Below, in pieces: positions 28,188 through 46,469 of a DNA stretch of 64,000 nucleotides. The notes below the pieces were generated by a model that was not told where the DNA came from, did no database searches, and worked only from the letters and a program-made list of their open reading frames with translations. The position numbers were made by a program, and so were the translations under genes. Location of the stretch: NCBI GenBank assembly GCA_016194635.1, contig JACQBC010000014.1:1-64000 (forward strand), read 5' to 3'. Origin of the DNA: Gammaproteobacteria bacterium (GTDB taxonomy: Bacteria; Pseudomonadota; Gammaproteobacteria; UBA6429; Thiohalophilaceae). The stretch's first letter is position 1. Every line of letters begins with the position of its first letter.

Positions 28188-30596
28188 TTATTTCCCCAGT
28201 ACCTCGAAACGCCGTTGCAAGCGATTGCCGTGATCGTCCACCAAGGTTAATACATGTTGTCCAGGCTGGATATCGAGCGCCTGTTGGTGATAGGTCTGGG
28301 TTTTCCCCAGGTAGTGATCATCGAGGTGCCAGTATAAAACCGCATCGGGGCGTGCGTGCACCGCCTCAAATACGGTTTTGCTTTTTTGCGCGCCGAGGTC
28401 GATGGGGATATACAAACGCGTGTTGGGCAGGGGGTATAACACATCGATCGGCCCCTGCGTGTCTTGTTGCGCCATCTGCGCGCGGCAGTCGGGCCGAAAC
28501 GGCGGTAAGGGCCGATACTCCGGATGACTGCGTTGATAATAAAACGCCTCGGCCTCGGGTAATACAAACCAGTCTTTATGTTGCATGCGACTGACTTGTT
28601 CGCAATCACTGCTAACCTGCCAGCGGCCGCTGCGATCTAAATGCACTTTTTGGAAATGCGTGGAGCTGCGATCGAACTGGCTTTGCTTGGGGATCCAGAC
28701 CTCTTGCGTCTCACAGCCTTCAACGGCCAGGTAACCGTCGGCTTTACAGATCCGCACCGGTTTCATCAACTCCAGCGGTTTGGTAAACCACTGCGGTGTA
28801 GGATCGAGTTGATTAAAAACATTAAACAACAGCGGCGCAGCCACTTGCACCCCGGTCATGTCCGGTCGGCCTTCGCCGCTGGCATTGCCCGCCCACACCG
28901 CGATGGTGTAATGCGGATCGCTGCCGATCGCCCAGGCGTCGCGCATGCCGACGCTGGTACCGGTCTTCCACGCCAGCTTGCGGCTACTGGCGAACTCTTC
29001 CCAATAATTTTCCTGCCCTGGACGGGACACTTCTACCAAGGCATTCAAGGTGGTCCAGGCTGCCGCCGCGCCGATCTCCGCAAGCCGTTGGGTTTGGTTC
29101 GACTGCGAGCGCAATATTTTGAGTTGGCCGTAATACAACAGTTGTTGTGGTTGGGTTTGCTTGGCCAGATAGGCTAGATTGGTATACATACCGGCCATGT
29201 CCCATAACGTGCCTTCCGCCCCGCCGAGGATCAACGATAAGCCGTAACCCTCGGCGCGCCGATGCAAGGTGCTCATACCGGCGTTGCGCAGAAATTCATA
29301 GAAACGATCCACGCCGTATTGGCGCAACATACGCACCGCCGGTACATTGAGCGAACGCGCCAAGGCACTTTGCGCGCTGACCGCGCCGCGGTAATGGCGA
29401 TCGAAATTCTCCGGCATGTAACCGGCGTACTGCGTGGGTAAATCCGGGATCAGGGTGGTGGGTAAGATCTCGCCGCGCTGGATCATCGTCGCGAATAACA
29501 ATGGTTTGAGAATACTGCCGGTACTGCGCGGCCGCTGCACGATGTCCACCGCGTAGCCATAGTCATTATTCGCTTGATACGCGCTGTTACCGACATAGGC
29601 CAATACTTCAAAATTGGTATTATCGACCACCATCAGCGCCAGATTGTGGATCTGTTGCAATGCCAAGACGGCGGCATGCGCCTGCGCCTGGGTTTCGACT
29701 TTTTCCTGCAGCTGGCGATCCAGCGTGGTCAGAAAACGGTGTTGCTCGGGATATTCACTTGTTAAGCTGTCCAACAAATGCGGGGCAATCCGCGGCAACG
29801 GTTGTGGCGCCAGCGGCAAGGGTTCGAGCAGGGCCAAACGTAAATCCACCGCCGTGAGTTGGCCGTTGGCGTGTAAACGTTGTAACAAGGCATTGCGTTT
29901 TTGCAGCAGACGATCGCGTCCGCGGCCGGGATGGATCAAGGCGGGGTTATTCGGCAATACCGCCAAGGTCGCGGCTTCGGCCCAGCTCAATTGTTCCGGA
30001 CCGCGGCCGAAATAACGCCACGCCGCGGCCTGCAGGCCAACCACATTGCCGCCGAACGGCGCGTGATCCGCATACAGCGCCAACACCTCGGATTTAGGCA
30101 ACGACAGTTCCAACCGCAGCGCCAGGATGATCTCGCGCAGTTTCTCCACAAGCGTGCGCGGTGGATTTTGCCGCGCCAGCCGGATCACTTGCATTGTCAG
30201 CGTGCTACCGCCGCTCACCACGCGCCGTTGTTTGAGATTCAAATACAGGGCACGCGCCAAGGCCAACGGATCAAAGCCCGGATGCGAGTTGAAACGCTTG
30301 TCTTCAAACCCAATGATGGCTTGCGAAAATTTTGCCGGTACGCCGCCCGCGGCTGGAAAACGCCATTGCCCGTCCGCGGCGATGTGCGCGGCGAGCAGAT
30401 CACCATCGCGCGCCAGCAATACACTGGAGACCGGGTCGTTAAACAACGGTGCGGGTAGGCAGCGCCAGAAGGCGCCGCCTACCCACAATAGCCCTACCAA
30501 CCACCAAACGCGACGTTGCCGCCAAAGTAATTTAAGGCTTGCCTTGTTTAACCACGTCGACCCACTGACCCTTGCTGCGCGCATGAATCGTTGCAT
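28188..30596 (-). CDS. pbpC: Penicillin-binding protein 1C
   Basis: 802 aa bifunctional peptidoglycan synthase. An N-terminal TM is followed by the GT51 glycosyltransferase (IIGFEDKRFNSHPG, SGGSTLTMQV, APFGG), the transpeptidase with SILK active-site Ser, SLN and KTGTS motifs, and a C-terminal BiPBP_C beta domain. ATG 30596 is chosen because GAGG lies 9 bases upstream. This makes it overlap the end of the alpha-2-macroglobulin gene by 65 bases; longer in-frame starts would overlap more. The pbpC-yfhM pairing is conserved widely; the two act in envelope repair and defence in the periplasm. Confidence 0.9.
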   Translation of the reverse strand: MQRFMRAARVSGSTWLNKASLKLLWRQRRVWWLVGLLWVGGAFWRCLPAPLFNDPVSSVLLARDGDLLAAHIAADGQWRFPAAGGVPAKFSQAIIGFEDKRFNSHPGFDPLALARALYLNLKQRRVVSGGSTLTMQVIRLARQNPPRTLVEKLREIILALRLELSLPKSEVLALYADHAPFGGNVVGLQAAAWRYFGRGPEQLSWAEAATLAVLPNNPALIHPGRGRDRLLQKRNALLQRLHANGQLTAVDLRLALLEPLPLAPQPLPRIAPHLLDSLTSEYPEQHRFLTTLDRQLQEKVETQAQAHAAVLALQQIHNLALMVVDNTNFEVLAYVGNSAYQANNDYGYAVDIVQRPRSTGSILKPLLFATMIQRGEILPTTLIPDLPTQYAGYMPENFDRHYRGAVSAQSALARSLNVPAVRMLRQYGVDRFYEFLRNAGMSTLHRRAEGYGLSLILGGAEGTLWDMAGMYTNLAYLAKQTQPQQLLYYGQLKILRSQSNQTQRLAEIGAAAAWTTLNALVEVSRPGQENYWEEFASSRKLAWKTGTSVGMRDAWAIGSDPHYTIAVWAGNASGEGRPDMTGVQVAAPLLFNVFNQLDPTPQWFTKPLELMKPVRICKADGYLAVEGCETQEVWIPKQSQFDRSSTHFQKVHLDRSGRWQVSSDCEQVSRMQHKDWFVLPEAEAFYYQRSHPEYRPLPPFRPDCRAQMAQQDTQGPIDVLYPLPNTRLYIPIDLGAQKSKTVFEAVHARPDAVLYWHLDDHYLGKTQTYHQQALDIQPGQHVLTLVDDHGNRLQRRFEVLGK

Positions 30597-33500
30597 CGTA
30601 CATCGCCTCGACCGCAATTCCCGGTGCATAGTAGTGACCCAGGTAGGATGCATTGAGTAATACCTGGAATTCTTTTTCCTCGCCGCGATTCAAACGAAAA
30701 TAGGTGTAGATCCGATCATCGCGAATATCTTGGAAATCAAAATTCTTCACCTGCGTGATCTTGTTGGCCTCACTCTCCGCCAACCGCGCGTTATGGATCT
30801 GCCAGCCCGAGGGCACTACCTGGGTCAACGCCAGGTTGGTAAGCCAGCGATCGTTGTGATTGCGGATCTTGAGATGTGCGATCAGATCCGTGCCCTGCGC
30901 CAATTTACTGATGTCCACCGGCTTACCTTTGACATCGGTGTAATTCACCGTCAGCGTCAGGCCCTTGCTGCTCTCGGTTTCCGTACCGGACTTGGGCACA
31001 CCGCTGACGCTGATCGTCACATATAGATTGCGCTGTGACGGGTTGCCGAGCGTGAGCTGTTCACCCTTAAGCGGGAAGTCTGCCAGTGCCTGGGAATACA
31101 TCGGCGTGTCCAGCGTAATCTTTTCCTGCGGTTTGTTGCCGCGCGTATGGGTGAAGGTCATGCCGCCGCTCACGCCGTCTTTACCGACAAAACGCGCCAT
31201 CGCCATCAGACTGAACGACACCTCCTGGGTACTCAGCCAACGATCCGCCGACAATTGCTTGGCGATATCATCGGCAAATTCCTTGGCTTCATCCCAGTTA
31301 CCCTGTAACGCCAGGCTGTCGAGCAGGATTGCTTTATCGCGCAAACGCGAACCGTAACTCCAACCTTCATAACTGTACTCGGGGATCTCGTATTTATCCC
31401 CTCGCACCAGTTCCTTCGCCACATCGGGCAAACCCGCCATGTGATAGGCCGCGGCCAACTGCCAACGCGCGGCAGAACTTAAGTTTTTGCTTTCGCGCAG
31501 GCGATTCATCGCGCCCAACTCGGCCTTGCCCGCCAGCGCCAAGGTATATAAACGATAGGATTGATCCAGCTCGTTATACTCGGTACGCACCACCCAATTG
31601 TTGGCGAGGTTGCGCTGATGGTTGATCCAGGCCGTGAGCATTTCCGGCGGCACGTGGTAACCCTGCTTGCTGGCTTCTACCAGGAAGTGCCCGGCATAAC
31701 TCGAACCCCAGCGATCATACTCGCCGTACCCCGGCCAATAGGTGAAACCGCCCCCGGACAACTGGAAGCCGCGTAACTTGGCGATAGCAATGGCGACGTG
31801 ATCCTGGATCTGGGCTTTTTGCTGATCGGTGAGCTTGATCAGTTTGGGCAGATAAATTTGCGGGAAGATCGACGAGGTGGTTTGCTCAATACAGCCGTGC
31901 GGATACTGAATCAAATATTGCAGACGGCCATCGAGGTTCATCGGCGGTACGGTCGATACTTCCAGATTGACACGGTTGGTACCGGCCAATCCATGCGGAA
32001 TGATCTCGCTACGCCAGGTATCGCCCGGTGCCAGTGCCTTACTAAGGTAGCGTGTCGACGGCGTGTTCGGCGTGCGCACCTCGAGATAAACCTCCTCGTG
32101 GGTTTGGTGTTCACCGCTGCGGGCGGTGAATTTCACGTAACCCTTACCGAGGGTTTCCTTCACCTTGAGTTTGAGAAAGCCGATCTGTTCTTCTTGTCCT
32201 TTGAATTGCACACGCGTGCTCTTCTCGCCCACCACCTCGAACAATTCGTTGGTTTCAATGGTCAGCGTGGCTTCCTTGATGGCCTTGTCCATGGCAAACA
32301 ACGACACCGGCACCAGCATATCTTCACCGGGTCCGATGACCCGTGGCAAGGTGGCGAGCATGCTTAAGGGCTGGCGCACCGGCACGGATTTATCAGCCGA
32401 ACCGTAAGCGCCGTGTTTACCGGCCACCACCATCACCCGTACCGAACCGATGTATTGCGGTAATCTGACCGTGTGTTTTTTGTGTTCACCCTTGGCCAGT
32501 TCAAACGCACCGAGGAATTTCACCACCGGTGGAAAACGTTTTTTCTCCCGCGCCTTATCGTTTTGTTCAGCTTCCGCGTCACCCCCCAGCGCCAGCAGAC
32601 GTTCAAGTTCACCACCGTAGGCCCCCGCGACATCATCGAACAGATCCCAGGTGGTCACCCCGAGGGCTTCTTTTTTATAAAAATAGTCATGCAATTGCGG
32701 CGTTTTGTAATTGGTCAAGGCCAGCAAGCCGTCATCCACCAGCGCCAACGTATAGGTCATGGCACGGCCTTGGCTTTCACTGACTTCGATGTTGACATCG
32801 GTGTCCGGCCGCCACTCGTCCGCGACCTTTAGTTTAGGCGCGAGCTTGGTCGTGGGGTCATCCACCAATAACGGAATCACGCCGTACATGCGGATCGGCC
32901 GATCATTATCGCGTTGCGCGTGGGGTTGGATCAAAGAGACCGCCACGTAGGCATTGGGCGTCATCTCGGCGGTCACGGCGACTTCAAAACGGGTGTTGTC
33001 CTTGCTTAAATTCACCCAGCGTTTGGATAATAGCCGTGAACCGGTTTCAACACTCACCAGCGCGCGGCCCTGGGTGGTCTTGGGCAATTGGATCTTGGCG
33101 GTTTCACCCACACTGTAGCGCGGCTTGTCGGCGCTAAAACTCAACATGTTGGCGCCTTCGCTGTCTTGCGCATGACTGCGTCCCATCCAGTAGGGATAAT
33201 CGGCGTAGAACACCTGGCCGCTGCAATGTTTGCCCTGGGTATCGCAGACACGCAGAAAATACCGTCCCCAGTTATTCTCGCCGCTGAGTTTAAATTTCCA
33301 ACTGCCGTGACCGTCTTTGGTCTTGAGCGTGGCTTGACTCACCGGCGTGTTGTACAACGCACTGGTGAATTGCGCGGATTCATCACCGGAGCGATCCCAC
33401 CACCAGCGCCAATCCATGCGATGCAGGGTAATCTGCACCTCATCCAGTGCCACCGGTTCGCCTTTGGCGTCGACCGAGGCGATATCGACGTTGTAATCGG

Positions 33501-36135
33501 TATCCAAGTAATACGAACCGTAATAGCCCTCGGTCTTGGGTAACTTGATACCGACATAGTGGCTGTAGGGATGATACGGTAATAGCGTATTGTTGATGCT
33601 AAAGGCACCGCCTTCTTCAAACACGCGGCTATTGAACTCGGCTTGTAATAGACCCGCGGGTTCGCTTTCACTTGGCAAGTTCGCTTCAAATTCCGCTATA
33701 CCTTTGTCATTCAGGTGGCCCTCGAAAATCACTTGCCGATCACTGTGAAACTTGCGTGACGGGTCGTCGAAGTTATAGTCGGCGAATTTACTAAAACGGG
33801 TACGCACGCTATTAAGTTTCACGGCCACATCGGTACGCAAATTCGCCGCGATCGCGCCGTGCAACCATTGGCTGGAGAGTTTTACCTTGACCGGCATCTC
33901 CTCGGCGTACAACTCCTGTCCGCCAAAATCCAGATCGACCTTAAGTCGGTTGGGCATGACGGTTTCAATTTTGATCGACTGGGTAAAGCTGGCGCCGCCC
34001 AACAGCGCCTTCGCCGTCCAGTTACCGGTGATGGCTTTATCCGCGGTACGGAACTTAAAGGTATAAAAATCTCCGACCGGTTTGCTGTTGGTAAGCCGTT
34101 GCAACATCTGATTCTTGGGGTTGTACAACTCCATGGTGACCGGATGATTGGCCGGCAGGGTAGCACCCTTATCTTCCAGCACGAAGGTTAGATAGATATC
34201 ATCGCCCGGACGCCATACGCCGCGTTCACCGTAGATATAGCCTTTAATGCCGTTGCTGAGTTTCTCCCCGCCCGCATCGAAGTGACTGAGCGGCAAACCG
34301 TTACCGGCGTTAACCTTGAGATAGCCGATCTGTTTGGCTTTTTTCGCGATCAAATAAAATGGCCGGCTCTTGGAGGTGAGTATCGCCATGCCCTTGTTAT
34401 CGGTTTCACCTTTGCTGATCGGCTGGTTCTGAAAATTCAGCGCCGTCAATTCCACCCCGGCGAGCGGCTCGGCGTTATCTAAACGGGTGGCAATGACATG
34501 CAGCTGATCATCATCACCCGCCTTGGCGATCAGGCCGATATTAGAGGCCATGAAGTTGCGCGACTCGAGCACCCCGCTGGCAAAACGGAAATACGCGTCC
34601 TTGCAGGGATTATCCCGGTCGCGCAATTGCGCTTCATAGCGGCTGGTATTTTCACCGTCGTAGTCTTCGGACTCGGCGTTATAACCATCTTCTGACTCGG
34701 CGCTTTCTTCCCCGCTAGTCGGCTCGTAACTATACAGATCTTCGTTATTTTTCGGTGGGTCTTCTTTTTTTATGGGAACCCCTTTATCTTGCTTGCTGCA
34801 AACATAGGTAGAATTACTGCGATTGATCGACAAAGTTAATTGAAATAAGCCCCCGGGATATTTGCGCAATAATTCCGAGGCGTCCAGGGCATAACGGTTC
34901 CATTGATCGGTTAAAACATTGTCCAGTTTGATTGTCTTACGCCACAAGAACCGCCCGACACGTTGCATATCACTGTTGCCGCTGAGATTATTGGCCTGTA
35001 GAAATTGACCGATATTGTTTTCATACACTCGGAAGGCCGTCACCTGCACCGCATTCACGTTAACGGCTTCGATTGGAATCGACAAAAACTGATTTTCCGG
35101 GAGGACCACACCCTTACCGGCGAACCGCACTTGGGGTTTTTGACTGGCGAACGTCACCTGGCGAACCTGGCGTTCTTTTAATTCCATTTTATGGATGCTG
35201 CGCACGCTGGGTTCGATAGTCACGGTGGCCTCACCGCTAAAACCCTTGTCGGTATAGATCCGCACCACACTGCCCTCGGTTTTGAGGGTCACCTTTTGAT
35301 CGGACACCTGGATCAAGCCTTTGAGATTTTGTTGTGCATCGAGCGCTTCGGAAAACGCCAGTTCGATATAACTGTGATCCTGTTGCAAGGCGCGCACATC
35401 CACCAGTTTAAAATCACCCAACGCCGGGATATCCACCGGGTATTTACCCTCGGACTCCACGTTGATCGCGCGGCCATTCCATGTAAGCAGCAATTGCGCG
35501 GCCTGCGCCCCGCGGCTGATATCGCTGATCATGAATTTGTGGTGTTTACTATCAGACTCGTGCTGCCATTGCAGAGCCAAGGTCTTACCTTGGTAATCGG
35601 CCCGCAGTACTTTCTCCACCTCCCCCTCGGCGGCGGTATCGGCCGTGACCAGCACACCGCGCAAGGTCATACCGGCCTGTTCCACGGCGGGCGCGCTCAA
35701 CCCATCAATGCGCACTTCCAGCTGCTGTTTAATGACCGCGACATCAAATTCGTAAAAGCCCAGTTCCTTGGGTATGTCTTTGAGACGATCCCCGTACACC
35801 CGGACGCGGTATTTCTGTCCGGATTTGAGCGGCTTGGTCGGCGTTAGCTCAATCTCACGCTTGCCGATATAACTAACCTCGCCATCCACCGCCGGGGTTA
35901 CCTCCAAGACCGCACTCGCGTCTTTGCCTACCTGATCATCGTTGACGATATCGTTGACAAACCGCACCCGGATTTTGTCTTCGCGGGATAACTGTTCCGC
36001 AGAGTGCATGTTGATGTACTCACTCCATTGAGGGTTTTGATGCGGCAGGGGAGGTAATTCTTCGATCCGATTACAACCGGCCAAGACCAGCAGTCCCATA
36101 ACGAGATAAATAACTATCCATGGCAGATTGCGCAC
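30532..36135 (-). CDS. Bacterial alpha-2-macroglobulin lipoprotein (YfhM type)
   Basis: 1867 aa. Lipobox VLAGC (Cys21), a chain of macroglobulin-like beta domains, bait region, and the thioester motif CIEQ (Cys about 1415) in YPHGCIEQTT, then an alpha-alpha toroid (about 1430-1680) and C-terminal domain. The intact CxEQ means it can form the internal thioester that covalently traps attacking proteases at the inner-membrane surface. It is longer than E. coli YfhM (1653 aa), partly through an acidic low-complexity insert around residues 460-510 (many Glu, Asp, Ser, Tyr). It is cotranscribed with pbpC downstream. Confidence 0.93.
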   Translation of the reverse strand: MRNLPWIVIYLVMGLLVLAGCNRIEELPPLPHQNPQWSEYINMHSAEQLSREDKIRVRFVNDIVNDDQVGKDASAVLEVTPAVDGEVSYIGKREIELTPTKPLKSGQKYRVRVYGDRLKDIPKELGFYEFDVAVIKQQLEVRIDGLSAPAVEQAGMTLRGVLVTADTAAEGEVEKVLRADYQGKTLALQWQHESDSKHHKFMISDISRGAQAAQLLLTWNGRAINVESEGKYPVDIPALGDFKLVDVRALQQDHSYIELAFSEALDAQQNLKGLIQVSDQKVTLKTEGSVVRIYTDKGFSGEATVTIEPSVRSIHKMELKERQVRQVTFASQKPQVRFAGKGVVLPENQFLSIPIEAVNVNAVQVTAFRVYENNIGQFLQANNLSGNSDMQRVGRFLWRKTIKLDNVLTDQWNRYALDASELLRKYPGGLFQLTLSINRSNSTYVCSKQDKGVPIKKEDPPKNNEDLYSYEPTSGEESAESEDGYNAESEDYDGENTSRYEAQLRDRDNPCKDAYFRFASGVLESRNFMASNIGLIAKAGDDDQLHVIATRLDNAEPLAGVELTALNFQNQPISKGETDNKGMAILTSKSRPFYLIAKKAKQIGYLKVNAGNGLPLSHFDAGGEKLSNGIKGYIYGERGVWRPGDDIYLTFVLEDKGATLPANHPVTMELYNPKNQMLQRLTNSKPVGDFYTFKFRTADKAITGNWTAKALLGGASFTQSIKIETVMPNRLKVDLDFGGQELYAEEMPVKVKLSSQWLHGAIAANLRTDVAVKLNSVRTRFSKFADYNFDDPSRKFHSDRQVIFEGHLNDKGIAEFEANLPSESEPAGLLQAEFNSRVFEEGGAFSINNTLLPYHPYSHYVGIKLPKTEGYYGSYYLDTDYNVDIASVDAKGEPVALDEVQITLHRMDWRWWWDRSGDESAQFTSALYNTPVSQATLKTKDGHGSWKFKLSGENNWGRYFLRVCDTQGKHCSGQVFYADYPYWMGRSHAQDSEGANMLSFSADKPRYSVGETAKIQLPKTTQGRALVSVETGSRLLSKRWVNLSKDNTRFEVAVTAEMTPNAYVAVSLIQPHAQRDNDRPIRMYGVIPLLVDDPTTKLAPKLKVADEWRPDTDVNIEVSESQGRAMTYTLALVDDGLLALTNYKTPQLHDYFYKKEALGVTTWDLFDDVAGAYGGELERLLALGGDAEAEQNDKAREKKRFPPVVKFLGAFELAKGEHKKHTVRLPQYIGSVRVMVVAGKHGAYGSADKSVPVRQPLSMLATLPRVIGPGEDMLVPVSLFAMDKAIKEATLTIETNELFEVVGEKSTRVQFKGQEEQIGFLKLKVKETLGKGYVKFTARSGEHQTHEEVYLEVRTPNTPSTRYLSKALAPGDTWRSEIIPHGLAGTNRVNLEVSTVPPMNLDGRLQYLIQYPHGCIEQTTSSIFPQIYLPKLIKLTDQQKAQIQDHVAIAIAKLRGFQLSGGGFTYWPGYGEYDRWGSSYAGHFLVEASKQGYHVPPEMLTAWINHQRNLANNWVVRTEYNELDQSYRLYTLALAGKAELGAMNRLRESKNLSSAARWQLAAAYHMAGLPDVAKELVRGDKYEIPEYSYEGWSYGSRLRDKAILLDSLALQGNWDEAKEFADDIAKQLSADRWLSTQEVSFSLMAMARFVGKDGVSGGMTFTHTRGNKPQEKITLDTPMYSQALADFPLKGEQLTLGNPSQRNLYVTISVSGVPKSGTETESSKGLTLTVNYTDVKGKPVDISKLAQGTDLIAHLKIRNHNDRWLTNLALTQVVPSGWQIHNARLAESEANKITQVKNFDFQDIRDDRIYTYFRLNRGEEKEFQVLLNASYLGHYYAPGIAVEAMYDATIHARSKGQWVDVVKQGKP

Positions 36136-40122: not shown

Positions 40123-40160
40123 ACCACGGGTTGAGTCAGCACCGGAGCCCGTGGATATTT

Positions 40161-40481
40161 ATGCGTCATTTGACCCCCCGTGAATTGCAACAACGCTTGA
40201 GCGACACGGCCACCCCGCCGACTCTACTTGATGTGCGTGAACCTTGGGAATTTAATCTTTGCCACATCGCGGGTTCCGAACTGATCCCCATGGGCCAAAT
40301 CTCCCAAGCCTTGGAACGTTACCAGCAAACACAGGAAATCGTGGTAATCTGTCACCATGGCATTCGTAGCCGACACGTAGCATACTATCTGGAGCACGCG
40401 GGTTTTAACAATATCATCAATCTTGAGGGAGGCGTCGAACGTTGGGCCAGAGAAATTGACCCCACCATGACGCGCTATTAA
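40161..40481 (+). CDS. Rhodanese-domain protein
   Basis: 106 aa, one rhodanese domain. LLDVREPWEF and the active-site loop CHHGIRSR (Cys64) mark a sulfurtransferase able to carry persulfide. ATG 40161 gives the usual start MRHLTPRELQQ; the frame is open upstream to TTG 40131 without need. The stop is 2 bases before the tolC ATG, so the genes are probably coupled. Acceptor unknown. Confidence 0.88.
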   Translation: MRHLTPRELQQRLSDTATPPTLLDVREPWEFNLCHIAGSELIPMGQISQALERYQQTQEIVVICHHGIRSRHVAYYLEHAGFNNIINLEGGVERWAREIDPTMTRY

Positions 40482-40483
40482 AC

Positions 40484-41800
40484 ATGTTGCATCGTTATTT
40501 TATTGTAGGTTTAGTCGTCATCCTTGTGAGCCAATCCCCTGCCAGGGCGGAGAATTTATGGCAGGTGTATGAACTGGCTAGGGCCAATGATCCCATCTAC
40601 CGCGCCGCCGAAGCCGATTACCGCGCCCAACTGGAAACCAAGGCCCAAGCGATTGCACCGCTCTTACCTCAAGTCAATGCCAGCGCCAGCCGCGGCAAGG
40701 ACAAGCTCGATGTGACAAAATCCACGACCTTTCCTCCCATTGGTAACTACGATACCAATACCACTAAATATTCTCTCAGCCTTACCCAGGCAATTTACCA
40801 CCACGATCGCTGGGTGGCGTTGCGTCAGGCCAATGCCCAAGTGGCGCGCGCCGAGGCCGGATGGGCCAGCGCCAAACACGACCTGATCATACGTGTGGCG
40901 CAAGCCTATTTCGGCGTGCTCAGCGCCGATGACAGCCTGAATTTCGCGCGCGCCGAAAAACAAGCCTTTGACCAACAACTGCAACAAACCCAACAACGCT
41001 TTCAAGTGGGATTGAGCGCTATCACCGACGTCTACGACGCCCAAGCGCGTTACGATCAATCGGTAGCGCAGGAGATCACCGCCGATAATCAATTGGCCAC
41101 CGCACGCGAGGCGCTGCGGGAACTCACCGGCCAGGCGGTGATGAATTTAGCCCTATTAAAAGACCCCTCTCCGTTGCTCAATCCGGAACCTGCCAATATC
41201 GACAGCTGGGTGAAAACCGCCTTGGAACAAAACTTCACCTTATTAATGAGCGAAAAAACCCTCGATATCGCCCGCGACGAGGTCAACCGGGTACGCGCCG
41301 GTCACTACCCGACCTTGGATTTGGTGGCCGCCCGCACCAGCACTAACACTAGCGGTGATTCAACCCTTGATAGTAAAGATACTACGCTGAGTTTGCAGCT
41401 CAATGTCCCGCTGTTCTCCGGTGGCTTGGTGTATTCACAAACCAATGCCGCGGAGCAGCGCTATTTCCAAAATAAGGAATTATACGAACAACAACGCCGC
41501 GCTACCGAACGCGCCGCGCGTATTTCCTTCCTCAGTGTACAAGCCGATGTCAGTCAAGTAACAGCCTTGCGCCAGACGCTTAAATCGAGCCAAACCGCGA
41601 TGGAAGCCACCCAAACCGGTTATGAAGTCGGTACCCGCACCATTGTGGATGTGTTGAACTCCAAACAAAGCCTGTACGGCGCGCAACGCGATTATGCCGT
41701 GGCGCGTTATAACTACATCATCGAAACCTTAAAATTAAAACAGGCCGTGGGCTCGCTCAATGATGATGAAGTAAAAAAGGTTAACGAGTGGCTGCAATAA
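40484..41800 (+). CDS. tolC: TolC outer-membrane channel
   Basis: 438 aa. Signal peptide (1-22, SPARA-EN), then NLWQVYELARANDP, the classic TolC N-terminal motif, and two repeats of strand-helix structure (LTQAIYHHD in half one; LNVPLFSGG and VGTRTIVDVLNSKQSL in half two). It matches type I secretion/TolC proteins better than the channel at 4.9 kb. It can serve the AcrAB-like pump, which lacks its own channel. It follows the rhodanese by 2 bases. Confidence 0.9.
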   Translation: MLHRYFIVGLVVILVSQSPARAENLWQVYELARANDPIYRAAEADYRAQLETKAQAIAPLLPQVNASASRGKDKLDVTKSTTFPPIGNYDTNTTKYSLSLTQAIYHHDRWVALRQANAQVARAEAGWASAKHDLIIRVAQAYFGVLSADDSLNFARAEKQAFDQQLQQTQQRFQVGLSAITDVYDAQARYDQSVAQEITADNQLATAREALRELTGQAVMNLALLKDPSPLLNPEPANIDSWVKTALEQNFTLLMSEKTLDIARDEVNRVRAGHYPTLDLVAARTSTNTSGDSTLDSKDTTLSLQLNVPLFSGGLVYSQTNAAEQRYFQNKELYEQQRRATERAARISFLSVQADVSQVTALRQTLKSSQTAMEATQTGYEVGTRTIVDVLNSKQSLYGAQRDYAVARYNYIIETLKLKQAVGSLNDDEVKKVNEWLQ

Positions 41801-41809
41801 TTTAGGGGT

Positions 41810-42361
41810 ATGTTGTCTGAACATCGTAAAAGCCATTTACTGATCATCGATATCCAAGAAAAGCTGGCGGCGGTCATGCCGCCTGAGGTGTTGGCCGCGA
41901 TCCTGCGCAACGCCTGCATCTTAATCGACGCCGCGCAGGCCCTCGATGTCCCCATCACCGTGACCGAACAATATCCGCAAGGTTTGGGACCAACCCATGC
42001 CGCGATTCGCGCACACCTCCCCGCCGCGCAAAAAATTTTCAGTAAAACCTGCTTTTCCAGTTGTAGCGCAGTAGCTAGTACCCCCCCAGCAGAGAATGTC
42101 CAGGGTCAGCAATTTATTCTGGTTGGGATGGAAAGCCATGTCTGTGTACTGCAATCGGCGTTGCAATTACAGGCGCAGGGCGCAACGGTATTTATTGTCG
42201 CCGACGCGGTTTGTTCACGCCGCGAATTTCACTTCAAAAACGCCTTGCGGCGTCTTCAACAGGCCGGCAACATTATCACAAGCACCGAATCGGTCTTGTT
42301 TGAATGGCTGCGTGACGCCAGCCATCCGCAATTTAAGGCATTGAGCAAGTTGATCCGCTAA
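41810..42361 (+). CDS. Isochorismatase-family hydrolase (YcaC-like)
   Basis: 183 aa. Cysteine-hydrolase triad: Asp14 in IIDIQEKL, Lys in IFSKTCF (about residue 80) and nucleophile Cys in GMESHVCVLQSAL (about 110), with the preceding cis-peptide region. Such enzymes hydrolyse amide or enol-ether bonds; the YcaC-like group has no settled substrate. It begins 9 bases after tolC and ends 33 bases before the lipid A gene, so cotranscription is likely. Confidence 0.85.
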   Translation: MLSEHRKSHLLIIDIQEKLAAVMPPEVLAAILRNACILIDAAQALDVPITVTEQYPQGLGPTHAAIRAHLPAAQKIFSKTCFSSCSAVASTPPAENVQGQQFILVGMESHVCVLQSALQLQAQGATVFIVADAVCSRREFHFKNALRRLQQAGNIITSTESVLFEWLRDASHPQFKALSKLIR

Positions 42362-42394: not shown

Positions 42395-44569
42395 ATGAGC
42401 GAACCCCTGCCACCCTTTGAATGGCGCTTTGCCTATAACCCGCGTTTCTGGCCAAGCTGGTGCGGCCTGGGGCTCATGTGGTTATCCACCCGGCTACCTT
42501 ATCGCCTTATCCTGTGGCTTGGGCATGTTCTGGGTGTGTGTCTGTGGGCCGTGGGTAGAGAACGGCGGCGCATCACGCGGATCAATTTACGCTTATGTTT
42601 TCCGCAATTAGACCGCCACGCACTGCGTCGGTTACAACGTCAGACGTTTTATTCCGCGGGGATGGCGGTGTTTGAATCCGCGTTAAGCTGGTGGCGCGGC
42701 AGAAAAGAGTTTAGCCCGTTATTCTTCAGCCAGGGATTTGAACACGTCACCGCCGCCTTGGCGCAGGGCAAGGGTGTCATACTCCTAGGGGGCCATTATC
42801 ACACCCTGGAAGTGGGTGGCCGTATCATGGCGCAACAGTTTGACAATTTACGCCCTACCTACAAACCCGCGCGCGACCCATTATTTAATTGGATGATGAT
42901 CCGCATGCGAATTCATCGCAACGGCGGTGTGATCAACAGCAGTAACATGCGCGAGGTATTGCGCGCGCTAAAACAAAATATCCTGCTATGGTATGCGCCG
43001 GACCAGGACTTCGGCAGCGAACGCTCGGTGTTCGCGCCGTTCATGGGCATACCCGCCGCCAGCCTGACCTTCACCGCGCGTCTGGCCCGGGCTTCAGGCG
43101 CGCCGGTATTACCCTGGTATTGCGAACGGCTGCCCAATGCGCAGGGCTATCGGGTACGCATCGAACCCCCATTAAAAAACTTTCCCAGCGGCGATGACAT
43201 CGCCGACGCCAGCACCGTTAACAGCGTGATCGAACTACAGGTACGACGTACCCCCGAACAATACCTGTGGGGACACCGCCGCTTTAAAAGCCGGCCGGCC
43301 GGTGAACCGATGCTGTACAAACCACGGCGCGACAGCGCGTTGCAACGTTATAGCCTAATCCTCCTCGCCCTGGCGCTGCCGGTGGCCGTCTATACCCTGT
43401 GGCTGGCATTTCGATCCAAACAGACACAGTATTATTGCGAACGGTTTGGGATGGCGCGCTTTCCAAGTCTGCCGCGCTGTATCTGGTTACACGCCGCCTC
43501 GGTGGGCGAAGTCAACGCTATTATTCCGTTAATCACGCTTATTCGGCAACAGTTACCCGCCTATCCGCTGTTGTTAACTTGTAATACCCCCAGCGGTTTG
43601 CAAAGCGCGCGCCGGCAACTGTCCACTACGGTAGCGATCCACTACTTACCCTTGGATTGGCAATTCGCCGTGCAGCGTTTCATTGATAGCGTGCAACCCC
43701 TGTGTGGTCTGATCACCGAAACCGAAATCTGGCCGAATCTGTTTTTATATTGCGGTTACCGCGGGATAAAACTTGCCCTACTCAACGCCCGTCTATCGCA
43801 ACGGGTCGAACGAATTCCGCGTTGGGTGCGAATGTCGCTGTGCCACAGCATGAATCATGTCACGACCGTGCTGGCACGCTCCGAGGTCGATAAACAACGT
43901 TATATTTCCATCGGCACCGCGGCGGAAAAGATCCAGGTCCTTGGGAATATCAAGTTCTCACTGCGCCCCGACAATGAACCCGCGCCGGCGGATCTTTGCC
44001 GTGCTTATATCTTGGCGGCGTCCACCCGTAACGGCGAAGAACAGCTAATCGTCGAACACTACCTGCGTAGCCAACACAATAATACCCTGCTAGTGATTGT
44101 CCCGCGGCACCCAAAACGGCTTCATGCCATTGTGCGGGTTTTAAATAGATTAAAACTACACTTTGCACTCCGCAGTCACCAAGACACGATCACCGCCGCG
44201 ACCCAAGTGTATGTGGCCGACACCTTCGGTGAACTCAAAAGTTTTATTGCCGGCGCACAATTTGTGATCATGGGCGGATCCTGGTGTCCCTTTGGAGGAC
44301 AAAACATCCTCGAAGTGGCCAACGCGGCTAAGGCGGTTATTTTTGGACCCCATATGAATAATTTCGCCGACGAGGCGCGGCTGTTTGTGCAGCACCAGGC
44401 GGGATTACAACTCACCTCCGCCCAACAACTCGCCGCCACCATCACAGAGCTTTGCGCTAATCCACAACTCGCCGCCGAGATGGGTAAAAACGGGCTGGCG
44501 TTGATCAACGCTAACCGCGATATGGCACTGCGTTATTTTACCGTGTTGCGTCAGCGGTTAACGCTCTAG
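42395..44569 (+). CDS. LpxL-WaaA fusion: lipid A acyltransferase plus Kdo transferase
   Basis: 724 aa. Residues 1-305 are a late lipid A acyltransferase (LpxL/HtrB): N-terminal anchor, the HX4E catalytic motif His134-Glu139 in GGHYHTLEVGG, LLWYAPDQDFG and YLWGHRRFKSRP. Residues 320-724 are a complete WaaA: its own hydrophobic anchor (about 322-345), SVGE (catalytic-type Glu372), TETEIWPNL, PRHPKR, VADTFGEL and GPHMNNF. The reading frame is continuous. WaaA adds Kdo to lipid IVA and LpxL then acylates the product, so the fusion joins consecutive steps. The two are normally separate genes. Kdo number cannot be read directly, but kdkA next door suggests a single Kdo. Confidence 0.93.
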   Translation: MSEPLPPFEWRFAYNPRFWPSWCGLGLMWLSTRLPYRLILWLGHVLGVCLWAVGRERRRITRINLRLCFPQLDRHALRRLQRQTFYSAGMAVFESALSWWRGRKEFSPLFFSQGFEHVTAALAQGKGVILLGGHYHTLEVGGRIMAQQFDNLRPTYKPARDPLFNWMMIRMRIHRNGGVINSSNMREVLRALKQNILLWYAPDQDFGSERSVFAPFMGIPAASLTFTARLARASGAPVLPWYCERLPNAQGYRVRIEPPLKNFPSGDDIADASTVNSVIELQVRRTPEQYLWGHRRFKSRPAGEPMLYKPRRDSALQRYSLILLALALPVAVYTLWLAFRSKQTQYYCERFGMARFPSLPRCIWLHAASVGEVNAIIPLITLIRQQLPAYPLLLTCNTPSGLQSARRQLSTTVAIHYLPLDWQFAVQRFIDSVQPLCGLITETEIWPNLFLYCGYRGIKLALLNARLSQRVERIPRWVRMSLCHSMNHVTTVLARSEVDKQRYISIGTAAEKIQVLGNIKFSLRPDNEPAPADLCRAYILAASTRNGEEQLIVEHYLRSQHNNTLLVIVPRHPKRLHAIVRVLNRLKLHFALRSHQDTITAATQVYVADTFGELKSFIAGAQFVIMGGSWCPFGGQNILEVANAAKAVIFGPHMNNFADEARLFVQHQAGLQLTSAQQLAATITELCANPQLAAEMGKNGLALINANRDMALRYFTVLRQRLTL

Positions 44570-44662: not shown

Positions 44663-45391
44663 TCAGCCGGTGCCGGAATAATCGGCATAACTCTGCAACA
44701 GCGTCGCGAAGTTCAATTCATTGAAGTAAAACGTGGTGTGGTGTTGTTTACTGAGTTTGTACAACGAACGTCGCAGGCGTAGTAGATTCGCCTGTTGCCA
44801 GGCCCCGGGAGCCCGCAACGTGGCACGGTCAAAATCGATCAAGTACAGCCTATTGCCTTCCCCTAATAAAATATTATGCGCATTCAAATCCGCATGGCAG
44901 ACCCCGTGCAGATGGAATTGTTTGAGGGTTCGTCCCAACCCCTGCCAGCTACGGCTGTCGAGATGCCCCTGGCGTAAAGCCTGCGCCAATGAACGTGTCT
45001 GCGATAAACGCACGGTGATTAATTGCGCGCTGTAAAATATTCCGCGCCGGCACAGTTGCGCCGCCACCGGTGCCGCGACCGGCAAGCCTTCGCCCGCCAG
45101 CCGCGCCAATAAACGCCACTCCCGCCAGGCTCGACTATTCTCAAGCCCCGTCCATAAATAACGATCACCCAGCAGGGGGGCCATCTGGCCCCCACGCCGA
45201 TAGTTGCGCAACACCCATTGCTGTTGCTGGTAGGAAATAAACCACGCCGTGCCCCGGCCCTGGGCCTGACCGACAACGGCGGACCGCGTTCGCCAATAAT
45301 CCACAGAAAACCATTCACTCTCGACTTGGCCGACCACATCGCCGTCGTATAGGATGTAACACTGGTTGATTTGACCCTGAACTGGATTCAC
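44663..45391 (-). CDS. kdkA: Kdo kinase KdkA
   Basis: 242 aa. Kinase-like fold with GRGTAWF nucleotide loop, VLRNYRRGGQM, the catalytic HADLNAHN segment and IDFDRA metal-binding Asp, closely following KdkA of Haemophilus (GRGTTYF, HTDLNAHN, LDFDK). It phosphorylates the single Kdo residue of the inner core. GTG 45391 is the chosen start because earlier in-frame codons would run through the divergent glycosyltransferase gene. That places two divergent GTG starts one base apart. Confidence 0.88.
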   Translation of the reverse strand: MNPVQGQINQCYILYDGDVVGQVESEWFSVDYWRTRSAVVGQAQGRGTAWFISYQQQQWVLRNYRRGGQMAPLLGDRYLWTGLENSRAWREWRLLARLAGEGLPVAAPVAAQLCRRGIFYSAQLITVRLSQTRSLAQALRQGHLDSRSWQGLGRTLKQFHLHGVCHADLNAHNILLGEGNRLYLIDFDRATLRAPGAWQQANLLRLRRSLYKLSKQHHTTFYFNELNFATLLQSYADYSGTG

Positions 45392-45392
45392 T

Positions 45393-46469
45393 GTGACAGC
45401 ATTGCCTCTATTGCAAGCCCCTGCGCGAATTTGCATTCTACGCCTTTCCGCCGTGGGTGACATCACACACACCCTGCCCGTAGTGCGTACCCTGCAGAAG
45501 CATTGGCCAACCACGGCCCTGACTTGGATTATCGGCAAGACCGAATACAGTCTGGTCCACGACATCCCCGCTATTGAATTTATCGTTTTTGATAAACGCG
45601 CATCCTGGCGTGATTATCGCAAACTACGCCTTCAATTAGCCCGCCGCCACTTTGATGTGCTGCTGCATTTGCAAATGTCGCTGCGTGCAAGCATGATCGC
45701 GCTACTGGTGAACAGCCCGATCAAACTCGGGTTTGACAAGGCCCGCGCCAAAGACCTGCAATGGTTATTCACCACCGATCGGATCGCGGCCCAGCCACGG
45801 CAACACGTAATCGACAGTTTGCTTGGCTTTAGTCAGGCCTTGGGACTCACTGATCCGCAGTACCGCTGGGACATCCCGATTCCACAAGACGCACGGTATT
45901 TTGCCGATCAGCAACTCCCTGGATCACAACCGACCCTGGTGATCAGTCCCTGCTCCAGCATGGCGTACCGTAACTGGGAGGTGGCCGGATATGCAGCGGT
46001 GGCGGATTATGCCGTACAACAATTGGATATGCGGGTGGTGCTCAGCGGTGGCCCCAGTCAGATGGAACGTGATTACGCGCGGCAGATTCAACAGGCCGCG
46101 CATGTACCGCTAATTGATTTAATCGGCAAGACCGACCTTAAACAATTACTCGCGGTATTGGCGCGAGCGCGGGTGGTGATCGCCCCGGATGCCGGTACGG
46201 CCCACTTGGCCAATGCGTTACAGGTACCGGTGATCGGCCTTTATGCCTGTACCAACCCGGATCGCGCCCGGCCGTATTGCTACCCGCAGTTTGTGGTAAA
46301 TAAATACCCGCAGGCGGTGCAGGCCACCCTGGGTAAATCCGTGCATGAGATCCCCTGGGGCACCCGCGTTCGGCAACCAGGAACCATGGGTCGAATCCTG
46401 CCGCACGAAGTTATAACCATGCTGCATCGGGTATTACAGGCTGCTACCGAATCGACATATCCCGCATAG
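45393..46469 (+). CDS. GT9 glycosyltransferase, heptosyltransferase I-like
   Basis: 358 aa. N-terminal ICILRLSAVGDITHTLPVVRTL is the GT9 acceptor-side motif; the C-terminal donor domain shows VIAPDAGTAHLANAL and GLYACTNPDRARPY. These enzymes add L-glycero-D-manno-heptose to Kdo or heptose in the LPS core. It resembles heptosyltransferase I types, but the acceptor cannot be fixed. The start is GTG 45393 with a weak GGA site; a TTG a few codons on is an alternative. It is head-to-head with kdkA. Confidence 0.8.
   Translation: MTALPLLQAPARICILRLSAVGDITHTLPVVRTLQKHWPTTALTWIIGKTEYSLVHDIPAIEFIVFDKRASWRDYRKLRLQLARRHFDVLLHLQMSLRASMIALLVNSPIKLGFDKARAKDLQWLFTTDRIAAQPRQHVIDSLLGFSQALGLTDPQYRWDIPIPQDARYFADQQLPGSQPTLVISPCSSMAYRNWEVAGYAAVADYAVQQLDMRVVLSGGPSQMERDYARQIQQAAHVPLIDLIGKTDLKQLLAVLARARVVIAPDAGTAHLANALQVPVIGLYACTNPDRARPYCYPQFVVNKYPQAVQATLGKSVHEIPWGTRVRQPGTMGRILPHEVITMLHRVLQAATESTYPA

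What the first reader, a model, noticed from the sequence alone, without database searches (positions are those of the whole stretch)
42395..44569. LpxL-WaaA fusion protein
One continuous frame encodes a complete late acyltransferase (HX4E motif) and a complete Kdo transferase with its own membrane anchor. The enzymes are consecutive: LpxL-type acyltransferases generally need the Kdo-bearing product of WaaA. A fusion implies substrate hand-off and fixed stoichiometry. The reversed order (later enzyme at the N-terminus) is notable. I know no characterised example.
Basis: partly seen in the sequence, partly recalled or inferred. Interest (0 to 1): 0.72.

Follow-up and report, generated by a model that had tools for sequence, protein, structure and literature searches.

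The report
Fused acyltransferase–Kdo transferase of lipid A
One gene in an uncultured gammaproteobacterium encodes two neighbouring endotoxin-building enzymes (LpxL and WaaA) as a single protein; the fusion is real, is kept in 28 sampled genomes, and its layout constrains how the second enzyme can sit on the membrane.

Summary
Confirmed. Window 42395-44569 (+) is one 724-aa frame: an LpxL-type lipid A acyltransferase (7-298) joined by a short basic linker to a complete Kdo transferase WaaA with its own hydrophobic anchor (anchor about 314-341, catalytic part 349-724). It is the only copy of either domain found in its 99%-complete genome. The same one-frame fusion occurs in 24 of 40 genomes of its order (16 genera) and in 3 of 6 genomes of a second order. 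A divergent fusion in a third family arose separately (AU p = 0.0004). It is therefore no sequencing error. Both halves are under purifying selection. WaaA catalytic residues are conserved in 23 of 23 aligned fusions; the LpxL HX4E dyad is intact in most and lost in one (G004). Relatives keep lpxL and waaA as adjacent genes, one pair with a single in-frame stop between them, so stop loss explains the fusion and its 'reversed' order. Fixed stoichiometry follows from the fusion; substrate hand-off is untested, and evolutionary coupling of the halves is weak. A Kdo kinase gene next door suggests a third enzyme acts between the two steps. New point: a cytosolic LpxL C-terminus upstream means the WaaA anchor cannot simply cross the membrane; it should be re-entrant.

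The parts
42395..44569 (+). lpxL-waaA fusion gene, 724 aa
   Evidence: one open frame; two full-length Pfam domains; AlphaFold2 pLDDT 93.3
42413..43288 (+). LpxL-type late acyltransferase domain (residues 7-298), including N-terminal anchor with a break at L34-P35 and the HX4E dyad H134/E139
   Evidence: PF03279; TIGR02207 over cut-off; solved LpxM matches model 10-311, Z 28
43289..43333 (+). basic linker between the domains (about residues 299-313)
   Evidence: alignment and model; no conserved internal start codon with a ribosome-binding site
43334..43417 (+). WaaA membrane anchor (helix 314-341) with central Pro329
   Evidence: Pro in the core of 25 of 26 fused and 30 of 32 stand-alone anchors; low hydrophobic moment; model helix 314-341
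43436..44566 (+). WaaA (KdtA, GT30) catalytic domains; predicted base E372, CMP-binding R571, N637, E640
   Evidence: PF04413; residue mapping to A. aeolicus WaaA; Z 33.7 to 2xci
44663..45565 (-). kdkA, Kdo kinase, convergent neighbour (likely true start inside this ORF)
   Evidence: NCBIfam PRK01723.1, 279.9 bits vs cut-off 142, residues 65-295
45393..46469 (+). LPS heptosyltransferase (GT9)
   Evidence: PF01075; closest to heptosyltransferase I model
40484..41800 (+). tolC, upstream in the same conserved gene order
   Evidence: TIGR01844 over cut-off; synteny
41810..42361 (+). isochorismatase-like hydrolase immediately upstream of the fusion
   Evidence: PF00857; conserved position in most relatives

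Best explanation
The gene makes a genuine bifunctional, membrane-bound enzyme of lipid A synthesis. The C-terminal WaaA part adds Kdo from CMP-Kdo to lipid IVA, probably one Kdo because KdkA is present. After phosphorylation by the neighbouring KdkA, the N-terminal LpxL part adds the 2' secondary acyl chain from acyl-ACP. Both catalytic parts face the cytosol. Each has its own hydrophobic anchor that should enter and leave the membrane on the cytosolic side, so the chain LpxL-linker-anchor-WaaA stays on one face. The fusion arose by loss of the lpxL stop codon in a tight lpxL-waaA operon and fixes 1:1 synthesis. SHOWN: single frame, both folds (predicted), conserved WaaA catalytic residues, intact HX4E here, only copy in the genome, recurrence, selection, gene order. 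INFERRED: activities, single Kdo, KdkA step in between, cytosolic topology, no cleavage. NOT SHOWN: any hand-off of substrate.
For: Domains and cut-offs; sole copy; LpxK and KdsB present, so the pathway is there; fusion in 28 genomes, 19 genera, 3 families; separate adjacent genes in relatives, one pair with a single in-frame TAA; dN/dS 0.06-0.25 wherever dS is not saturated, in both halves and the linker; WaaA catalytic and CMP-binding residues conserved 23/23 except R56 and one F247 variant (S54 equivalent is Thr throughout); AlphaFold2 model and matches to solved LpxM and WaaA; E. coli LpxM shown re-entrant and LpxL proposed so (PMC6133551); KdkA requirement in other species (PMC3178793).
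Against: No biochemistry. NCBIfam WaaA equivalog cut-offs are not reached (333 vs 438 bits), so the WaaA half is divergent. The dyad Glu is Asp in G017 and G018 and Leu in G004, so the acyltransferase half may not be active in every relative. AlphaFold2 draws the WaaA anchor as one continuous helix 314-341 in one of the less confident parts of the model, which does not by itself show a re-entrant hairpin.
Confidence: 0.85

Rival explanations
1. Channelling module: the fusion exists to pass Kdo-lipid IVA from the WaaA site directly to the LpxL site.
For: Two steps of one pathway in one chain; pTM 0.85 for a 724-aa two-domain model suggests a defined relative placement; fusion arose at least twice.
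Against: Partial correlation of the halves' distances given neighbour genes is only 0.11; LpxL and WaaA trees disagree for some fusions, and in g11 the halves diverge unequally; KdkA probably acts between the steps; genus g13 of the same family keeps two separate genes.
Confidence: 0.25
2. The fused gene still yields two separate enzymes, through an internal start or protein cleavage at the linker.
For: The linker is short, basic and variable, and the window has an in-frame ATG seven codons after the end of the LpxL motif.
Against: No conserved start codon or ribosome-binding motif at the junction; several fusions (L034, L038, L154) have no start codon there at all. The linker and anchor are under purifying selection.
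Confidence: 0.1
3. The WaaA anchor crosses the membrane and the WaaA part is periplasmic.
For: The anchor core is hydrophobic enough to insert, with low amphipathicity.
Against: WaaA needs cytosolic CMP-Kdo and its product is used by ATP-dependent KdkA (established pathway knowledge); LpxM's globular part and N-terminus are both cytosolic; a central Pro and basic residues before the anchor fit the published signs of re-entrant segments.
Confidence: 0.05
4. Assembly or sequencing error joining two genes.
For: None found; the genome is a draft.
Against: Same open frame in 28 genomes, at about 45-67% identity to the window for the 22 others aligned from its order.
Confidence: 0.005

Closest known systems
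LpxL/LpxP/LpxM late acyltransferases (PF03279; A. baumannii LpxM 5kn7)
   Same: Fold (Z 28), HX4E dyad, N-terminal hydrophobic segment with a Pro break
   Different: C-terminus continues into a second enzyme; only acyltransferase of this family found in this genome
WaaA/KdtA Kdo transferases, GT30 (A. aeolicus 2xci/2xcu, A. baumannii C-terminal domain 4bfc)
   Same: Fold (Z 33.7), catalytic Glu, CMP-binding residues, N-terminal hydrophobic anchor as in stand-alone proteobacterial relatives
   Different: Anchor is internal in the chain, preceded by a cytosolic enzyme; divergent from the NCBIfam equivalog models
LpxC-FabZ natural fusion (PMC3087551)
   Same: Natural fusion involving the lipid A pathway, from a gene cluster
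   Different: Different enzymes, early step; no LpxL-WaaA fusion is named in the passages of that survey that were read
waaA-lpxK and lpxL-waaA gene pairs
   Same: Adjacent genes for neighbouring steps
   Different: Separate polypeptides

Membership tests
LpxL/LpxP late acyltransferase | PF03279 full length and TIGR02207 cut-off | tested here: met
   212.8 bits, profile 3-294/295; 299.1 vs 297.8 bits
LpxL/LpxP late acyltransferase | HX4E catalytic dyad | tested here: met
   H134/E139 in the window protein
LpxL/LpxP late acyltransferase | Kdo-dependent acyl transfer to the 2' chain | not testable with these tools
   needs enzyme assay
WaaA/KdtA (GT30) | PF04413 domain plus C-terminal GT-B domain | tested here: met
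   profile 5-178/179; model matches 2xci over 340-724, Z 33.7, and 4bfc, Z 25.2
WaaA/KdtA (GT30) | catalytic base and donor-binding residues of A. aeolicus WaaA | tested here: met
   E31, E98, K162, R212, N273, E276 equivalents in 23 of 23
NCBIfam WaaA equivalog models PRK05749 | curated score cut-off | tested here: not met
   best 333 vs 438 bits; not filed under these models, only under the GT30 family
Kdo kinase KdkA (neighbour gene) | NCBIfam PRK01723.1 cut-off | tested here: met
   279.9 vs 142 bits
Monofunctional (one-Kdo) WaaA | transfers a single Kdo | not testable with these tools
   only inferred from the kdkA neighbour
Re-entrant (monotopic) membrane anchor | basic residues before, helix-breaking residue inside the hydrophobic segment | tested here: met
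   mean net charge +3.7 before the anchor; Pro in 25 of 26 fused anchors
Re-entrant (monotopic) membrane anchor | both ends on the cytosolic side | not testable with these tools
   follows by inference from LpxL and WaaA being cytosolic; needs cysteine-accessibility mapping

The most novel reading that the evidence does not exclude
A single-chain, single-face lipid A module: both anchors are re-entrant, the fusion holds the WaaA and LpxL sites together on the cytosolic leaflet with KdkA working between them, and the re-entrant anchor with its central proline is a general property of proteobacterial WaaA that no solved WaaA structure found here shows.
Probability: 0.3. Interest if true: 0.7.

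Novelty: new variant of a known kind. Interest (0 to 1): 0.52.

Why it matters
No description of an LpxL-WaaA fusion turned up in the open papers searched. It gives a ready-made single-gene test of whether late lipid A steps are coupled, and a natural argument about WaaA topology: with a cytosolic enzyme fused upstream, the WaaA anchor must start and end on the cytosolic side. The solved WaaA structures found here align only from residue 340 or later, so they do not cover the anchor. In this genome, as far as the assembly shows, all LPS would have to pass through one polypeptide.

Tried and rejected
Sequencing or assembly error: rejected by recurrence in 28 genomes. Redundant stand-alone copies in the own genome: none found. 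Long WaaA frames elsewhere (G185, G296, G391, G304, G251, G128, G311, G340) as further fusions: rejected, no LpxL in those frames. First genome-contig scan with the single protein found nothing; the alignment scan worked. Single origin of all fusions: rejected for G398 (p 0.0004), not rejected for f1 plus f36 (p 0.47). Internal translation start: no conserved signal. Mirror-tree support for tight coupling: absent. First mixed alignment A2 misplaced stand-alone WaaA anchors and was replaced by A3. The A. aeolicus WaaA paper itself is not held; its residues were taken from a review (PMC6286764).

Full report
What is there. The frame 42395-44569 (+) encodes 724 aa without a stop. Pfam places a complete late acyltransferase at 7-298 and the WaaA N-terminal domain at 349-522; NCBIfam WaaA models run to residue 720. 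The acyltransferase passes the LpxL/LpxP cut-off of TIGR02207 narrowly; the WaaA part stays under the equivalog cut-offs, so it is a divergent GT30 enzyme. AlphaFold2, with an alignment of window and database relatives, gives mean pLDDT 93.3 and pTM 0.85. The model matches A. baumannii LpxM over 10-311 and A. aeolicus WaaA over 340-724.

Only copy. In the 3.7 Mb, 99%-complete genome there is one match each to PF04413 and PF03279, both in this gene. The same PF03279 search finds extra copies in most relatives, so the search is sensitive. LpxK and KdsB are present, side by side on contig 19. The window itself also holds kdkA, heptosyltransferases, an HldE-type protein and an epimerase of HldD type.

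Distribution. The order holds one family and 40 genomes. 24 are fused (16 genera); 5 genomes of genus g13 have lpxL and waaA as separate neighbours, overlapping or nearly so; 4 of genus g14 have waaA without lpxL beside it; 7 cannot be judged because of contig breaks or missing hits. A profile of the fusions against 369 Gammaproteobacteria found two more one-frame fusions, G322 and G398. G322's order has 3 fused and 3 split genomes of 6. G398's two sister species have two separate genes. A sample of 398 genomes of the phylum gave no other one-frame case at E 1e-150; a very divergent fusion could be missed. Two named public records carry it: JAJDNN010000039.1 and CAMYMU010000032.1, uncultured gammaproteobacteria.

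Origin. Near relatives carry lpxL and waaA in the same direction as neighbours, others on opposite strands. In L075 the lpxL frame ends in one TAA directly before the in-frame start region of waaA, so a single stop loss would make the fusion and explains why the later enzyme is N-terminal. On a tree of neighbour genes the fused/split state needs at least four changes. On the WaaA tree one origin for all fusions is rejected (p 0.0004), while one origin for f1 and f36 fusions is not (p 0.47). So there were at least two fusions; splitting back in g13 and g14 is possible but not shown. These trees used a short search, and some branches are weak.

Function of the halves. Residues of A. aeolicus WaaA named in a review (PMC6286764) map to S369, E372, E442, W446, K520, P570, R571, F611, G612, L614, N637 and E640, which are conserved in 22 or 23 of 23 fusions; S54 is replaced by Thr and R56 by Ser or Thr. 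The acyltransferase dyad HX4E is kept in the window and most fusions; it is HX4D in G017 and G018 and HX4L in G004. G004 has a stand-alone LpxL-like gene as well. dN/dS is 0.06-0.25 in both halves and in the linker wherever it could be computed.

Topology. The anchor in the fused proteins is a hydrophobic stretch with a central proline and basic residues before it; the proline is in 25 of 26 fused and 30 of 32 stand-alone anchors. E. coli LpxM has both its N-terminus and its globular part in the cytosol, and LpxL was proposed to be the same (PMC6133551). WaaA uses CMP-Kdo, a cytosolic donor. If LpxL ends in the cytosol, a crossing anchor would put WaaA on the wrong side. The anchor should therefore be re-entrant. 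Its core has a low hydrophobic moment, which speaks against a helix lying flat on the surface. The model draws one continuous helix of modest confidence, so the shape is open.

Mechanism and limits. The neighbour is a Kdo kinase by a wide margin. In V. cholerae, H. influenzae and B. pertussis LpxL homologues need phosphorylated Kdo (PMC3178793). If this holds here, KdkA acts between the fused steps, and strict consecutive hand-off is unlikely without KdkA joining. Coupled evolution of the halves is weak (partial r 0.11). I therefore commit to a bifunctional enzyme with fixed stoichiometry (0.85) and leave channelling at 0.25.

Known or new. Both enzymes are well known; LpxC-FabZ is a known fusion in the pathway (PMC3087551). 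Paper searches for an LpxL-WaaA fusion returned nothing relevant; subscription journals are mostly not covered. I class it as a new variant of a known kind.

Noticed in passing
L036:4395-6599, L155 and L075 (same contig), L083, L102: A cluster of LpxL homologues in which the catalytic Glu of HX4E is Leu or Ile (HX4L/I), including one fused protein (G004). They group together on the LpxL tree, so this may be a distinct or inactive subtype.
   Followed up: partly
L043, L053, L058 (genus g11): The LpxL half of G028 (L058) is much more diverged from G011 (L043) than the WaaA half (pN 0.23 vs 0.12), as if the acyltransferase half had recombined inside the fused gene.
   Followed up: no
window 40131-40481 and 41810-42361: A rhodanese-like gene before tolC and an isochorismatase-like hydrolase just upstream of lpxL-waaA hold their place across most of the family; their role in an LPS/TolC gene cluster is unclear.
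   Followed up: no
L046, L055, L059, L061 (genus g14): waaA stands in the usual place but lpxL is gone from it; other PF03279 genes lie elsewhere in these genomes.
   Followed up: partly
window 44663-45565 and 45393-46469: The kdkA ORF as called overlaps the divergent heptosyltransferase gene; the kinase homology starts only at residue 65, so the true start is probably internal and the two genes diverge from a short shared region.
   Followed up: no
window 30532-36135 and 28188-30653: Bacterial alpha-2-macroglobulin next to a penicillin-binding protein of the PbpC type; the pairing is known to me from other bacteria (from memory, not checked).
   Followed up: no
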